Origin: Tannerella serpentiformis
Lineage (GTDB): Bacteria > Bacteroidota > Bacteroidia > Bacteroidales > Tannerellaceae
Length of the DNA: 64,000 nt
Direction: 5' to 3'
Assembly (NCBI RefSeq): GCF_003033925.1
Contig: NZ_CP028365.1
Location: 2,418,001 to 2,482,000, forward strand
Positions 4,445 to 64,000 of the stretch are shown here, piece after piece. Positions within the stretch are counted from its first letter, which is position 1, and each line of letters begins with the position of its first letter. Position numbers and translations under genes: made by a program. The notes under the pieces were generated by a model. That model was not told the DNA's origin. It searched no databases and worked only from the letters and a program-made list of their open reading frames with translations.

Positions 4445-4830
4445 TGGGTGTCTTTGTCTGTGGACAATGGGATGAAATATATGTTTTGCCTGCTTTTGTC
4501 TATGAAAAATGAGAGGGAATATATGTATTGAGCGCTTTTGTCTATGGACAATGGGATGAAATATATGTATTGGGTGCTTTTATCTGCGGACAATGGGATG
4601 AAATATATGTTTTGGATGCTTTTGTCTATGGACAATGAGGTGAAAAACATGTTTTGGATGCCTTTGTCTATAGACAATGAGGTGAAAAACATGTATTGGA
4701 TGCTTTTGTCTATGGACAATGAGATGAAAAACATGTATTGGATGCCTTTGTCTATAGACAATGAGAGGGAATACATGTATTGGATGCCTTTGCCTACAGG
4801 CAATGGGAGTACGCACCTGTTAGATTCGCT
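4445..4830. repeat. Tandem array A: 42-bp units, 9 copies
   Basis: Exact 42-bp spacing: the TTTGTC landmark recurs at 4456, 4498, 4540, 4582, 4624, 4666, 4708, 4750 and 4792. Most units carry the palindrome TTGTCTATAGACAA or a close variant; the last has TTGCCTACAGGCAA, a compensated change on both arms. The array fills most of the 4328-4945 gap between uvrA (3' end) and the small gene (5' side). Frames through it are open on both strands because 42 is divisible by 3, but I do not think they are coding. Confidence 0.95.
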
Positions 4831-4945
4831 TTCGACGGCAGACGAGAGGCGAAGAAACAGGGGGAGGAGGGGGGCGATGATGGTTTTGGAGGTGGCGAGG
4901 CGCTGAACGAGAGGGGTGCCCATACACATATATAATAGGTATGGG

Positions 4946-7846
4946 TCAGCCCTCGGAAAGCTCTTTGCGGAGGAAGGGGGCGGTGCGGCTGCGGGTGCGT
5001 GGGGCGGCGGCGAGGGCTTCGGGCGTGCCGGTGAAGAGGATGCGACCGCCGCCACGGCCACCGTCGGGGCCCATGTCGATGAGGTAGTCGGCGCTCTTGA
5101 TGACGTCGAGATTGTGCTCGATGACGATGATGGTGTTGCCCTTGTCGACGAGCTTGTTGAGGACGCCGAGCAGGACGTGGATGTCTTCGAAGTGCAGGCC
5201 GGTGGTGGGTTCGTCGAGGATGTAGAGCGTGCGGCCGGTGTCGCGTTTGGCGAGTTCGGTGGCCAGCTTGACGCGCTGGCTTTCGCCGCCTGAAAGGGTG
5301 GTGGAGGGTTGGCCGAGCTTGATGTAACCCAGGCCGACGTCTTGCAACACCTTGATCTTGCTGAGGATGGCGGGGATGTTTTCGAAGAATTCGACGGCCA
5401 TGTTGATCGTCATGTCGAGGACGTCGGCGATGGACTTGCCGCGATAGCGCACCTCGAGTGTCTCGCGGTTGTAGCGGCGGCCGTGGCAGTCTTCGCAGGG
5501 CACGAGCACGTCGGGCAGGAAGTTCATTTCGATCGTTTTGTAGCCGTTGCCTTTGCACGTTTCGCAGCGTCCGCCGGAGACGTTGAACGAGAAGCGCCCG
5601 GGCTTGTAGCCGCGGATCTTGGCTTCGGGCAGGCTGACGAAGAGGTTGCGGATGTCGGCAAAGACGCCCGTGTAGGTGGCCGGATTGCTGCGTGGGGTGC
5701 GGCCGATGGGCGACTGGTCGACGTTGACGACCTTGTCGATGTGCTCGATGCCCTCAATGGACTGGTAGGGCAGGGGCTCCTGTTCCGAGCGATAGAATCG
5801 CTGGCTGAGGATGGGCTGGAGGGTGGCGTTAATGAGGGTGGATTTGCCGCTTCCGGAGACGCCGGAGACGCAGATGAAGGTGCCCAGCGGGAAGCTGACG
5901 TCGACCTTCTTCAGGTTGTTGCCCGTGGCGCCTCGAAGCACGAGGTGATGGCCGTTGCCGGGGCGACGTGTGGCGGGCACCTCGATCTGGCGCCGGCCGT
6001 TGAGGTAAGACGAGGTGAGGGTGTCGGTCTTGATCATCTCGTCGGGTGTGCCGGCAAAGACGACTTCGCCGCCGAGCCGCCCCGCCTTGGGGCCCATGTC
6101 GACGACGTAATCGGCGCTCAGCATCATGTCCTTGTCGTGCTCCACGACGATGACTGAGTTGCCCGTGTCGCGCAGCTCTTTGAGGGAGTCGATGAGGCGG
6201 ATGTTGTCGCGTTGGTGGAGGCCGATGCTGGGCTCGTCGAGGATGTAAAGCACGTTGACGAGGCGGCTGCCGATCTGCGTAGCCAGGCGGATGCGTTGGC
6301 TTTCGCCGCCGGAGAGGGTGGCCGAGGGGCGGTTGAGGGAGAGGTAGTCGAGGCCGACTTCGAGGATGAAGTCAAGGCGCGAGCGGATCTCTTTGAGGAT
6401 CTCCACGGCGATGGTGCGCTGCGCCGGCGAGAGCTTTTCCTCCAGGCCGTTGACCCACTTGGAGAGCTCGGCGATGTCCATCGAGGCCGGCTCGGCGATG
6501 TTCTTGCCATCGATGAAGTAATGCAACGCTTCCTTGTTCAGGCGCTGGCCCTGACATTCGGGACAGATGGCGGTGCGGATGAATGGAGCGGGCTTTTTGC
6601 GCGCGGTGGCCGTGGCCTCGTCGTCGCTTTCGCCTTGCATCATGGCGATGTATTTCGCCACGCCCTCATAGGCGTACGAGAAGCTGGAGTGGCCGAGCCA
6701 CGCTGTCGAGACGGCCACCGGCTCCTCGGTGCCGTTGATGATCTCGTCCATGGCCTCTTCGGGGAGGTCCTTGATGGGTGTCTTGAGCGTCGCGCCGTGT
6801 CGCTTGCAGAGGGCTTCGATCTGCCGGAAGACGAGCGTGTCTTTGTATTTCCCGAGGGCCACAATGCCCCCCTTATAAATACTGAGCGAGGGGTCGGGGA
6901 TGATCTTCTCCATGTCGATCACGTTCACCTCGCCGAGGCCCTTGCAGCGTGGGCAGGCGCCGTGGGGCGAGTTGAAAGAGAAGTTGTGTGGCGCCGGCTC
7001 GCTGTAAGCTAGTCCGGTCACGGGGCACATCAGTCGGCGGCTGTAGTAACGCATCTCGTCCGTCGTGGCGTCGAGCAGCAGGATGAGTCCGTCGCCCTGC
7101 TTCATGGCCACGCGGAGGCTCTCCTTGAGGCGTGGCCCGTCGTTGATGCTGACCACGAGCTTGTCGATGACCACCTCAATGCTGTGCATCTTGTATCGAT
7201 CCAACTTCATGCCGCGGCTGATCTCCATCAGCTTACCATCGACGCGCACGTTGAGGTAGCCCTTCTTGCGCACCTGCTCGAAGAGCTCCTTGTAGTGCCC
7301 CTTGCGGTTGCGAATGAGTGGCGCCAGCAGATACATCTTCCGGCCGTTATACTCCTGCATGATCAGCTCCAGAATCTGCTCCTCGGTGTACTTGACCATC
7401 TTCTCGCCGCTGAGGTAGGAGTAGGCCTCGCCAGCGCGGGCGTAGAGCAGGCGGAGGAAGTCGTAGACCTCCGTCGTGGTGCCGACGGTGGAGCGTGGGT
7501 TGCGGTTCGTCGTCTTTTGCTCGATGGAGATGACGGGGCTCAGACCGGTGATCTTGTCCACGTCTGGCCGCTCCACGTTGCCCATGAAGTTGCGGGCGTA
7601 GGCCGAGAAGGTGTCGATGTAGCGACGCTGACCTTCGGCGAAGATGGTGTCGAAGGCGAGCGACGACTTGCCGCTTCCGCTCATGCCCGTGATGACGGTG
7701 AGGCGGTTGCGGGGCAGCTCGACGTCGATATTCTTCAGGTTGTGCACGCGCGCACCCCATACGCCGATGGTGCCTCCCCGCTCGACGCGGTCGTCCGTTG
7801 TTGTGACTTCTTTCTGTTTATCGATAGCCATACGTGCTGCGTTCAC
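4946..7846 (-). CDS. uvrA: UvrABC excinuclease subunit A
   Basis: Damage-recognition ATPase of nucleotide excision repair; a UvrA dimer loads UvrB on lesions. 966 residues with two ABC modules: Walker [10 protein letters not shown] (54-62) and GVSGSGKST (about 664), each with an LSGGE signature. The C-terminal zinc module CETCKGNG...CEDCHG (about 755-785) is intact. In the N-terminal module the usual first CxxC reads CPVTG, so one Cys is missing, while CPRCKG remains. The GTG start at 7846 overlaps the upstream stop as GTGA; ATG 7831 (MAIDKQ) is an alternative start. It is co-directional with the transglycosylase gene. Confidence 0.96.
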
Positions 7847-8799
7847 TTCGTCACCCAGCGCTGGTCGTAGACGGTGCGGTTGGGGGAGGTGTAATAGAGG
7901 TCTTGTTTGCGGGGAATGAGGATGGTGTAGCTGCGGCCATTGGAGATGAGCTTCGAGTCGCGCAGCCAGGGGTTGAAACGCTTGAGGTCGGCGTAGGTGA
8001 TGTCGTGCGACTTGGCGAAGGCTACCAAATCGGGGATACCGGCCGAGACCGTCACCTCGTCGCAGGAGATGGGCGCGTAGAGGTCGCGTGGGCGGAGCGA
8101 GAAGCCGTATTTCTGCGGGTTCTCGAAGATGAGCTTCGTGGCCAGGATGCGATAGACGTAGCGCGCCGTCTCCTCGACGAGCCAGAGGTTCAGCACGGAC
8201 GTCTCGCGTTGTGAGGCGAAGGCGCCCGAGATGCGCCCCATGCCCGCGTTGTACGATGCGGCGGCCGAGGCCCAGTCACCGTATTTATTGTAGGCGTCCT
8301 TGAGGTAGCGGCAGGCGGCCTCCGTGGCGCGGGCCACGTTGTAACGCTCGTCCACGCTGGGCGTGATCGTCAGGCCATATTCCCGTCCGGCTGATTCCAA
8401 GAACTGCCACATGCCTGCGGCGCGCGCTGGCGATACGATGCGCGGGTCGAGATGGCTCTCTACGACGGCCAGATACTTGAAGTCCTCTGGCACTCCATTG
8501 GCCTTCAGGATAGGCACGATGATGGGGAAGTAGCGGTTGGCGCGCTTGATGGTCAGCATCGTGGTGGAGTGGAAGTAGGCCAGGCTGCTCAGCTCGCGGT
8601 CCATGGACTCGTACATGTTATATCGGGTCAGGTCAATCGTCTGACCGCAGAAGGTGACCTTCTCCGGCACCTCGGGCGAGGTGATCCAGCCGTCGTCCTG
8701 TCGGGGCTGTTCGGAGTTTTGCGATTGGACGGGGAAGCAGGCCGTCAGGCTGATCAGTCCGGCCGCGAGGAAGCAGGCCGTGAATTGTTTCGTTCTCAT
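7843..8799 (-). CDS. Membrane-bound lytic murein transglycosylase (SLT domain, lipoprotein)
   Basis: 318 residues. Lipoprotein signal with lipobox LTAC and Cys21, so it is membrane anchored facing the periplasm. The SLT-type catalytic domain has [18 protein letters not shown] with probable catalytic Glu114, followed by GMWQF and the [12 protein letters not shown] motif. The C-terminal segment (about 255-300: [20 protein letters not shown]) resembles a single LysM peptidoglycan-binding repeat. The arrangement is that of MltD-like enzymes that cleave MurNAc-GlcNAc bonds to 1,6-anhydro products. Its TGA overlaps the uvrA GTG. Confidence 0.88.
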
Positions 8800-8813
8800 T
8801 CTCTCTCTTATGC

Positions 8814-63433: not shown

Positions 63434-63470
63434 CCGCTCTCGAAAATCCGCCCAGTTTGTGGAACACGCA

Positions 63471-63520
63471 AGCCGGACGAATCCCATCCCCACCAAGGAC
63501 AGGATTCGCCCGGCTTTCTT
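63471..63520 (+). terminator. Terminator of the ZnuC-like gene
   Basis: AGCCGGACGAATCC (63471-63484) / GGATTCGCCCGGCT (63502-63515) followed by TTTCTTATTT. It lies 38 bp past the stop, so no permease gene follows in the same transcript. Confidence 0.8.
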
Positions 63521-63599
63521 ATTTCCCGTCCTCAGTAAGTATATGGAAAACACGTACTTCATCTTTTCCTTACCCGTCAAGGAAGAGAAAGCTGTAACT

Positions 63600-64000
63600 A
63601 TATTTATCCCATCCTCGGCGAGTTTTCGATAGCTGTGGCCATATTCATCCCATTCCCGCCGGGTTTTTGATAGCTGTGGCCATATTCATCCAATCCTTGG
63701 CGGGTTTTCGATAGATATGGCCATATTCATCCCATCCTTGCCGGGTTTTCGGTGAAAATGGCCATATTCGCCTAATCCCCGCCGGGTTTTCAGTGAAAAT
63801 GGCCATATCCATCCAATCCTCGCCGGGTTTTCAGTGAAAATTGCCATATCTGTCCAATCCTCGCCGGGTTTTCAGTGAATATGGCTATATCCGTCCAATC
63901 CTCGCCGGGTTTTCAGTGAAAATGACCATATCCGTCCAATTCCCGCCGGGTTTTCGGTGAATATGACCATATTCCCCTAATCCCCGCCGGGTTTCGCGTA
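63600..64000. repeat. Tandem array N: 41-bp units, at least 9 copies, runs off window
   Basis: The GGCCATATTC landmark (or variants) recurs at 63641, 63682, 63723, 63764, 63805, 63846, 63887, 63928 and 63969, all 41 bp apart. Units share CGCCGGGTTTTC and a dyad such as ATATGGCCATAT or GAATATG-AC-CATATTC. The array fills the right end of the window after the ATPase terminator. Confidence 0.95.

What the first reader, a model, noticed from the sequence alone, without database searches (positions are those of the whole stretch)
4445..64000. Fifteen tandem arrays with a constant ~41-42-bp period but array-specific sequences
By my gene calls, each of the 14 intergenic gaps over 300 bp contains a tandem array with unit length 40-42 bp or exactly 84 bp (arrays A-D, F-O), and array E has the same period inside lptD. 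Unit sequences are unrelated by eye between arrays, yet period is conserved, and most units carry a dyad. Known: such uniform period with unrelated sequence is not expected from random VNTR growth. Inference: selection acts on spacing (four DNA turns at 10.5 bp), for example a phased nucleoid-protein or chromosome-organising element, or a DNA-RNA system that copies units of fixed length.
Basis: partly seen in the sequence, partly recalled or inferred. Interest (0 to 1): 0.95.

Follow-up and report, generated by a model that had tools for sequence, protein, structure and literature searches.

The report
Genome-wide 42-base rhythm in bacterial DNA
Tandem repeats of a constant 41-42 bases fill many gaps between genes of this mouth-bacterium relative, and the same 42-base rhythm is also hidden in the silent letters of its ordinary genes, which hints at a regular packing of the chromosome and is not an ordinary repeat family.

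Summary
In 1.264 Mb (42%) of this 3.01-Mb genome, 172 of 238 tandem arrays of at least 100 bp have 40-42-bp units and 16 have 80-86; only 8 lie between 24-38 or 44-79. Most of those compared are unrelated in sequence. One (J) is cargo of a multi-copy MITE.

Unexpectedly, the period is not confined to arrays. In 555 repeat-free genes, third-codon-position identity (lags 15-177) peaks at 42, 84, 126 and 168 (z 17, 13, 12, 10; next 3.0), synonymous shuffling removes it, codon positions 1 and 2 show little or none, and it recurs in array-free gaps. Same-strand neighbours within about 3 kb share its phase. One relative has a 21.0-bp version in two stretches with 21-bp arrays; two other relatives and the other Bacteroidota tested do not.

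Best reading, inferred: a regularly spaced protein-DNA assembly (four helical turns) biases substitutions, and tandem growth in unconstrained DNA keeps that spacing. Main rival: out-of-register copying by 42 bp.

The parts
4444..4808 (.). array A, 42-bp units x 8.2
   Evidence: the syntenic gap in relative G031 is about 20-30 bp against 618 bp here
10364..10591 (.). array B, 40-bp units x 5.4
15281..15610 (.). array C, 41-bp units x 8.0
21088..21348 (.). array D, 41-bp units x 6.4; relative at L022:11436-11745
23550..23870 (+). array E, 42/84-bp units inside the N-terminal part of lptD (frame 23365-26457); in the three nearest relatives the match begins at residues 150-153
27754..27940 (.). 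array F, 42-bp units x 4.5, unit shared with the tail of I
29782..30574 (.). array G, 41-bp units x 10.9 passing into 42-bp units x 8.5
39206..39436 (.). array H, 42-bp units; relative at L016:4039-4265
42233..42674 (.). array I, 41-bp units x 7.3, then 62-bp units x 2.5; relative at L014:11374
45937..46383 (.). array J, 41-bp units x 10.9 with two dyads per unit, core of a MITE
45920..46472 (.). MITE around array J (left end decayed and estimated by eye; right terminal repeat GTCGAACTCACGT at 46460-46472)
   Evidence: syntenic gap in relative G014 is about 150 bp against 718 bp here
59022..59216 (.). array K, 84-bp units
59705..59884 (.). array L, 84-bp units
62499..62698 (.). array M, 84-bp units
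63600..63994 (.). array N, 41/82-bp units
56765..63433 (+). run of four genes (56765-58207 pyruvate kinase, 58230-58892, 60073-62169, 62729-63433) with raised 42-bp synonymous periodicity; their G-rich phase drifts smoothly (9, 7, 5, 3 mod 42) across arrays K, L and M, their GC-rich phase does not (12, 19, 18, 15)

Best explanation
The chromosome carries a weak base-composition rhythm of 42 bp (best fit 41.9-42.0, harmonics at 21, 14 and 10.5) that keeps its phase over one to a few kilobases and runs through genes, array-free gaps and part of the arrays. Shown: the rhythm, its restriction largely to synonymous sites within genes, its coherence between same-strand neighbours, and a different period (21) in a relative. 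Inferred: a protein-DNA assembly repeating every four helical turns sits in a roughly fixed register and biases mutation, repair or fixation by position. In genes only silent changes survive. In unconstrained gaps the same spacing favours birth and growth of tandem units of about 42 bp, often with a dyad, by slippage or unequal exchange, so each array has its own sequence and all share a length. Some arrays (family J) were then spread by an IS5-type MITE.
For: Array census 172 of 238 at 40-42 bp. Synonymous sites: GC-skew power at 42.0 of 1.74, 1.68 and 1.23 in three separate gene sets (192, 194, 169 genes), z 10.3, 8.8 and 5.1 against synonymous shuffles; all 555 genes 1.56, z 12.3, with 21, 14 and 10.5 also raised; at codon positions 1 and 2 GC skew reads 1.24/1.12 and 1.11/1.11 in the first two sets, GC content 0.91-0.97. 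Third-position identity, lags 15-177: z 17.4, 13.5, 12.5, 10.4 at 42, 84, 126, 168, next 3.0. Array-free gaps: the same four lags lead. Same-strand neighbours within 1 kb share phase, 0.32+-0.10. The nearest 42-bp array, extrapolated in phase, predicts third bases at mean z 0.31+-0.07, 300 genes. Power falls with distance from 42-class arrays, p 0.003, not from 41/40-class arrays, p 0.49. GC-skew and GC keep a fixed imaginary cross-phase at 42, 21 and 10.5 (t 2.9, -4.5, 4.3; at 14 only 0.6), which suggests a partly shared profile. Relative G014: GC3 power at 21.0 of 1.94, z 10.2 (125 genes), in phase over 10.8 kb in one stretch and between opposite strands in another.
Against: No protein was shown; HU-type matches number 5 here, 5 and 7 in relatives without the rhythm, 11 in G014. 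In this genome opposite-strand neighbours show no shared phase at 42 (0.03+-0.10) though 0.28+-0.13 at 21; in G014 0.20+-0.18, inconclusive. 89 of 238 arrays are of the 40/41 class, off the lattice. In the third gene set P(42) was only 1.23, with 1.19 at 39. In G014 the rhythm sits in 2 of 13 stretches while 5 other stretches with 21n arrays lack it, and extending the arrays in phase predicts nothing there (mean z -0.12+-0.14, 59 genes). Phocaeicola abscessus has 41-bp arrays and no clear rhythm (sk3 at 42: 1.12, z 1.7-2.4). A template from one gene set does little better forward than time-reversed on the next (3.91 against 3.75, null 3.23), so most of the pattern is local. No anchor was found.
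Confidence: 0.42

Rival explanations
1. Out-of-register templating: strands misaligned by whole units (42n or 21n bp) through slippage or unequal exchange in arrays leave single-base conversions in flanking DNA, so arrays imprint their period on neighbouring genes and only synonymous conversions survive.
For: It explains a whole-number period, phase shared with 42-bp arrays here, decline with distance from 42-class arrays and from 21n arrays in G014 (6.72, 2.71, 1.46, 0.89; Spearman p 0.08), and similar strength at all multiples.
Against: 41-bp arrays leave no trace of their own: flanks of 41-class arrays prefer lag 42 (0.297) and their lag-41 identity (0.278) is the same as next to 42-class arrays; power at 41 is not raised near them. 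Runs of identical third bases are no longer than the raised identity predicts. Amplitude is tiny yet decays slowly, the reverse of what repeated copying should give. With phase free, the nearest unit fits no better than other units (percentile 0.499, 300 genes). Five G014 stretches with 21n arrays lack the rhythm, and arrays extended in phase predict nothing in G014.
Confidence: 0.27
2. Selfish minisatellites only: MITE- or REP-like repeats whose period is inherited from a few ancestors, sequences having diverged; no lattice.
For: J family: terminal repeat AACGTGAGTTCGA (up to one mismatch) 61 times against 1 for the reversed control, IS5-type parents about 1.03 kb long with the same ends, at least one such end near 15 of 34 J places (my count). 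P. gingivalis MITEPgRS has 41-nt repeats. Arrays are nearly indifferent to gene orientation: 100 of 164 tandem, 23 of 38 convergent, 32 of 62 divergent gaps.
Against: Only 11 of 73 arrays have flanking inverted repeats at a score reached by 1.9% of random pairs. Between-array similarity is near chance on average (17.7 against 17.5 matching bases). It cannot explain the rhythm in genes and array-free gaps.
Confidence: 0.17
3. Selection for DNA or RNA hairpins: units are chains of about 21-nt palindromic modules acting as structured elements.
For: Best dyad at least 8/9 in 17.5% of 63 arrays against 0.8% of shuffles. Two covarying stem pairs 97% Watson-Crick in 63 distinct J units. Two dyads per 41-bp unit in the P. 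abscessus family by eye.
Against: Most arrays lack strong dyads. Within arrays compensatory changes are 36 of 252 against 3% expected, half of them from one array. No half-unit similarity overall. No preference for convergent gaps. It does not address genes.
Confidence: 0.08
4. Artefact of gene calling, protein repeats, assembly or spectral method.
For: Home-made gene caller; no annotation available; one genome only for the 42-bp form.
Against: Three disjoint sets agree in sign, synonymous shuffles and neighbouring lags are flat, and other genomes run through the same pipeline show no 42-bp peak. Sequencing errors would not prefer third codon positions.
Confidence: 0.06

Closest known systems
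BrickBuilt and MITEPgRS/464 of Porphyromonas gingivalis (PMC4596501: outline with abstract, section 7 part 1 and passages seen)
   Same: Minisatellites of 23 and 41 nt inside MITEs with IS5-type ends, intergenic, same bacterial order; the J-family end ACGTGAGTTCGA equals the first 12 bases of the MITE239 end printed there and is close to ISPg3
   Different: There two families with about 10-20 copies each; here many unrelated arrays with one period, mostly without detectable terminal repeats, plus a rhythm in genes
10-11-bp 'structural code' of prokaryotic genomes, strong at third codon positions (PMC4132750, passages seen; PMC3431218, one passage; Cohanim 2006 and Tolstorukov 2005 as cited there)
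   Same: Periodic composition in genes and gaps, largely synonymous, read as DNA packaging; a 10.5-bp component is also present here
   Different: Known range about 100 bp and one helical turn; here 42 bp (21 in a relative) with a harmonic series, coherent for kilobases, strand-asymmetric, and matched by tandem arrays of the same period
Phased nucleosome arrays with associated sequence variation in medaka (PMC4653950, search listing and start of abstract; otherwise recalled)
   Same: Regular protein-DNA array recorded in sequence over 1-2 kb
   Different: Eukaryotic, about 200 bp (recalled), anchored at transcription starts; here no anchor was found and no protein is known
REP/BIME repeats with RAYT transposases (PMC3733652, PMC2817692: listing and start of abstract only)
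   Same: Intergenic, palindromic, partly tandem
   Different: No Y1 transposase match in P. abscessus or G014, which have such arrays; unit sequences differ from array to array
Highly divergent dispersed repeats of 400-600 bp in bacterial genomes (PMC10341722, passages seen)
   Same: Weak genome-wide sequence similarity, discussed there with DNA packing and synonymous codons
   Different: Attributed there to triplet periodicity; the passages seen name no 42-bp or 21-bp period

Membership tests
MITE-borne minisatellite (BrickBuilt/MITEPgRS kind) | terminal inverted repeats around the array | tested here: met
   J family only: conserved inverted ends in several of nine loci read, 61 terminal repeats, six of 34 places with both ends (my count). 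For arrays in general not met: 11 of 73 with a flanking inverted repeat
MITE-borne minisatellite (BrickBuilt/MITEPgRS kind) | parent insertion sequence with the same ends | tested here: met
   two intervals of about 1.03 kb with both ends and DDE_Tnp_1 matches that contain stops
MITE-borne minisatellite (BrickBuilt/MITEPgRS kind) | target-site duplication | not tested
   the left end of the window copy is decayed
REP/BIME with RAYT | Y1 (RAYT-like) transposase in genomes that carry the arrays | tested here: not met
   one in this genome, none in P. abscessus, G014 or G033
CRISPR array | repeats separated by unique spacers | tested here: not met
   units of the window arrays abut without spacers
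prokaryotic structural code | period of 10-11 bp | tested here: inconclusive
   10.5 present (GC3 1.62, z 14.1) but together with 42, 21 and 14
prokaryotic structural code | concentrated at third codon positions | tested here: met
prokaryotic structural code | range of about 100 bp | tested here: not met
   coherent to about 1.8 kb within genes and over 10.8 kb in one G014 stretch
phased chromatin lattice | regular protein occupancy in phase with the sequence | not testable with these tools
   needs MNase-seq, ChIP-seq or footprinting

The most novel reading that the evidence does not exclude
This bacterium packs its chromosome on a regular lattice with a repeat of four helical turns (two turns in domains of a sister species). 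The lattice has been stable enough, for long enough, to be written into synonymous codon choice genome-wide, and the constant-period minisatellites are places where that lattice crystallised into tandem repeats. It would be a bacterial counterpart of nucleosome phasing that can be read from sequence alone.
Probability: 0.33. Interest if true: 0.95.

Novelty: new variant of a known kind. Interest (0 to 1): 0.84.

Why it matters
Whether bacterial nucleoids have any regular, chromatin-like repeat is an open question. A sequence rhythm of four turns in silent sites, coherent over kilobases, matched by tandem arrays and different in a sister species, makes that question directly testable in a cultivable genus: one genome-wide nuclease map would decide. 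It would also give a cause for minisatellite unit length, which is usually treated as accidental. If the rival is right, it would instead reveal a long-range mutational imprint of repeats on neighbouring genes, also new to me.

Tried and rejected
Rejected or weakened: RAYT/REP mobility. Arrays as dimers of 21-bp monomers: half-unit similarity mean z 0.19 over 70 arrays, though 21-23-bp arrays are frequent in other Bacteroidales. A general terminal-repeat explanation. An RNA-level dyad (G-T 58, A-C 66 in 42 arrays). Gene-start anchoring: an early start-aligned GC3 signal falls to the level of control periods when the first 40 codons are dropped (3.0 at 42 against 4.4 at 43 and 6.3 at 48); but with 15 codons dropped, 225 first-in-operon genes give 7.92 for GC3 at 21 (0.2 at 39, 0.06 at 45), and with 40 dropped GC3 gives 8.3 at 14, so some alignment of harmonics to starts is not excluded. 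A universal 42-bp template: the first cross-spectrum is partly trivial because GC and GC-skew share the C count; the same near-pi phase appears in control genomes, so only the imaginary part is used. One search ended in an error after four of five gene sets; the fifth was done. A naming scan of genome contigs does not return the window's own genome, so no call gives the species name. Rows dropped before counts: genes overlapping any repeat found at score 40 or shorter than 600 bp (450 bp), arrays shorter than 100 bp in the census, and in the dyad and unit-similarity tests arrays without a 39-43 (or 40-42) bp row of three or more copies; phases were printed only for genes above a power cut-off. 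E. coli (50 kb) was fetched as a control but not analysed.

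
Full report
What was checked. The window lies at 2418001-2482000 of a single-contig genome of 3,013,500 bases. Its lptD has its nearest named relatives in Parabacteroides and a Tannerellaceae MAG, 57-58% identity, and 70-71% in three unnamed same-genus genomes. A gap-free genome with higher GC3 is reported for Tannerella sp. BU063, the sister of T. forsythia (PMC7014623, passages); that this is that species (now T. serpentiformis) is my inference, named by no call.

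Arrays genome-wide. In 60 evenly spread 20-kb stretches plus the window (1.264 Mb, 42% of the genome) Tandem Repeats Finder gives 238 arrays of 100 bp or more: 172 with 40-42-bp units, 176 with 39-43, 16 with 80-86, 11 with 20-23, 1 with 24-38, 7 with 44-79, 18 longer and 9 shorter. Of 264 gaps of 300 bp or more, 155 hold a 42-class array, with little regard to gene orientation (100 of 164 tandem, 23 of 38 convergent, 32 of 62 divergent). By crude gene of 86 arrays of the first sample lie mostly outside genes, but array E lies inside lptD by the longer frame; in the three nearest relatives the match starts at residues 150-153 and no array is seen. In two syntenic gaps the arrays are additions here or losses there: 718 bp against about 150 bp in G014 at array J, 618 against about 20-30 bp in G031 at array A.

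Sequence families. By BLAST 75 arrays (seven of them fetched through J) fall into 54 groups, the largest being J with nine. Consensus units of 62 arrays are hardly more alike than shuffled ones on average (17.7 against 17.5 matching bases), apart from 12 clear pairs and a slight excess of middling ones (22 or more: 3.1% against 1.1%). J is different: 62 matches at about 34 places (my count), conserved inverted ends, terminal repeat AACGTGAGTTCGA 61 times (up to one mismatch) against 1 for the reversed pattern, and two intervals of about 1.03 kb with these ends and DDE_Tnp_1 matches that contain stops. At least one such end lies near 15 of the 34 J places, both ends at six (my count). It is thus a MITE with a 41-bp minisatellite, as in P. 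gingivalis, whose MITEPgRS has 41-nt and BrickBuilt 23-nt repeats (PMC4596501). Within one J locus the unit changes sequence while the 41-bp step stays (L002, L006, by eye). Only 11 of 73 arrays have flanking inverted repeats above the level reached by 1.9% of random pairs, so this is not shown to be the general origin.

Dyads. Units carry more dyad symmetry than shuffles: best dyad of at least 8/9 in 17.5% of 63 arrays against 0.8%. In J two dyads lie about half a unit apart, and two stem pairs covary with 97% Watson-Crick pairing in 63 distinct units. Within single arrays compensatory changes are 36 of 252 against 3% expected, but 18 come from one array. Phocaeicola abscessus has a 41-bp family with two dyads per unit by eye, 24 matches in its genome.

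The rhythm outside arrays. Autocorrelation of gaps peaks at 42, and unexpectedly that of genes does too. The genes responsible are ordinary ones. After removing every gene that overlaps a repeat, 228 genes show excess identity at 42 and its multiples out to several hundred bases, not at odd multiples of 21. Spectra place the signal at third codon positions: GC3 1.48 at 42.1, keto3 1.75 at 41.9, while GC at positions 1 and 2 reads 0.91 and 0.97 at 42 (192 genes). Replication on new stretches: GC-skew at third positions 1.74 and 1.68 at 42 (z 10.3 and 8.8 against synonymous shuffles), and 1.23 (z 5.1) in a third set, where 39 gave 1.19, 21 gave 1.76 and, for GC3, 10.5 gave 1.71. Position-1 GC skew reads 1.24 and 1.12 at 42 in the first two sets, so a slight effect there is not excluded. 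Over all 555 genes: skew 1.56 at 42, 1.75 at 21, 1.44 at 14; GC3 1.62 at 10.5. Third-position identity over lags 15-177 stands out at 42, 84, 126 and 168 (z 17.4, 13.5, 12.5, 10.4), the next being 3.0. The best period is 41.9-42.0. Genes without the top 5% still average 1.21, against 0.84 expected by my calculation for a truncated exponential (the script's own printed figure, 0.80, lacks the division by 0.95). Array-free gaps (148 gaps, 96.6 kb) have the same four leading lags (z 5.7, 3.9, 3.9, 3.2).

What kind of signal. It is diffuse: runs of identical third bases at lags 42 and 84 are not longer than the raised identity predicts (for example 154 and 182 runs of seven or more, against 127-159 at lags 33-51 other than 42; the prediction is mine). 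It is coherent: cross-power between segments of one gene stays at about 0.04-0.10 out to about 1.8 kb, and same-strand neighbours share phase (0.32+-0.10 within 1 kb, 0.22+-0.09 at 1-3 kb; GC3 0.19+-0.06 within 1 kb), lost beyond 3 kb; opposite-strand neighbours give 0.03+-0.10 at 42 and 0.28+-0.13 at 21. In the window four genes from 56765 to 63433 have G-rich phases 9, 7, 5, 3 mod 42, a smooth drift across arrays K, L and M, while their GC-rich phases (12, 19, 18, 15) do not drift so (only genes above a power cut-off were printed). No clear anchor at gene starts was found, though harmonics at 21 and 14 are not excluded. GC-skew and GC keep a fixed imaginary cross-phase at 42, 21 and 10.5 (t 2.9, -4.5, 4.3) but not at 14 (0.6), so part of the profile may be shared; a template trained on one set does little better forward (3.91) than time-reversed (3.75) on the next (null 3.23).

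Link to arrays. Power falls with distance from 42-class arrays (1.83, 1.56, 1.49, 1.31, 1.22; Spearman p 0.003) but not from 41/40-class arrays (p 0.49); comparing genes near one class only, the difference is not significant (p 0.15). With all classes pooled it was p 0.056. The profile of the nearest 42-bp array (92 arrays), extended in phase, predicts third bases of genes (mean z 0.34+-0.11 in 141 genes within 1.5 kb; 0.31+-0.07 in 300 within 5 kb), but the nearest unit is no better than other units when phase is free (percentile 0.529 and 0.499). In G014 the same extension predicts nothing (mean z -0.12+-0.14, 59 genes). DNA 45-250 bp outside arrays prefers lag 42 next to 42-class arrays (0.331) and also next to 41-class arrays (0.297); lag 41 is 0.278 in both. 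So the 42-bp rhythm does not look made by 41-bp arrays.

Relatives. G014 (125 genes): GC3 power 1.94 at 21.0 (z 10.2), 1.65 at 10.5, none at 42, with leading peaks at 21.0, 7.0 and 10.5. It is confined to two of 13 stretches (means 9.97 and 5.21), both with 21-bp arrays, while five other stretches with 21n arrays lack it. By distance to such arrays power is 6.72, 2.71, 1.46, 0.89 (14, 19, 26, 66 genes; Spearman p 0.08, and the near genes come largely from two stretches). In one stretch five genes over 10.8 kb keep AT-rich phases 19.6, 1.0, 20.5, 0.2, 20.2 mod 21; in the other, genes on both strands agree (19.8 and 20.0 on one, 18.4 on the other; one further gene 2.2). Over all G014 pairs same-strand neighbours within 1 kb give 0.93+-0.36 and opposite-strand ones 0.20+-0.18. 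G014 arrays of 100 bp or more are 21 (4), 42 (4), 22, 41, 63 and 83 bp (1 each) of 12. G031 and G033 have four arrays of 100 bp or more together (8, 221, 41, 42 bp) and no rhythm in 69 and 50 genes. P. abscessus (206 genes), 180 genes from 20 named Bacteroidota loci and 180 from same-order genomes show no clear 42- or 21-bp peak; P. abscessus reads 1.12 for skew at 42 (z 1.7 and 2.4 in two runs) and 1.21 for GC3 at 10.5 (z 3.1).

Reading. The most economical cause is a regular protein-DNA assembly; the main rival is out-of-register copying seeded by arrays. I prefer the former because amplitude is small but decay slow, because 41-bp arrays leave no trace of their own, and because the phase drift in the window looks non-integer; but in G014 the phase is whole-number to within a base or two over 500 periods, which fits the rival better. 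No protein is identified, and HU-type genes give no lead. Literature: no paper in the held library mentions a 42-bp or 42-nucleotide periodicity by the phrases searched, and the one hit for a 21-bp periodicity is a paper on rhamnose regulons, seen in the listing only; the closest is the roughly 11-bp structural code.

Noticed in passing
L009, L011, L015, L018, L022, L025, L026 (own genome): 7-bp tandem arrays TAGAGGG/CCCTCTA, up to 34 copies, in three of these stretches with both orientations close together
   Followed up: no
L164, L166, L179 (P. abscessus); L112, L068 (G014): Higher-order arrays in whole multiples of about 21 bp (43, 64, 107; 42, 63, 105), as in satellite DNA
   Followed up: partly
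L084-L103 and other Bacteroidales stretches: Short tandem repeats of few copies cluster at 21-23 bp in several Bacteroidales, not only here
   Followed up: partly
G014:C113:649-11433 (L112): Very strong 7-codon rhythm in synonymous sites of five genes in a row; the strongest (3613-6705, power 40) reads like an RND transporter by its N-terminus (my reading, no family search)
   Followed up: partly
G000:C1:920031-921056 and 2499189-2500215: Two IS5-type elements with the MITE ends; their transposase matches contain stop codons
   Followed up: no
window 2846-3362: Two tRNA-Glu genes (CTC, TTC) in a gap without an array
   Followed up: no
own genome compared with G014, G031, G033: GC of 56-58% here against 47-49% in same-genus relatives, and a coding fraction of only about 75% by crude calls
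   Followed up: no
L016:18846-20000, L017:12573-15312, L015:18481-19091: Long complex repeats of 165, 252/294 and 172 bp; those of L015 and L016 share short words such as GGGGCGTATGCAAT
   Followed up: no
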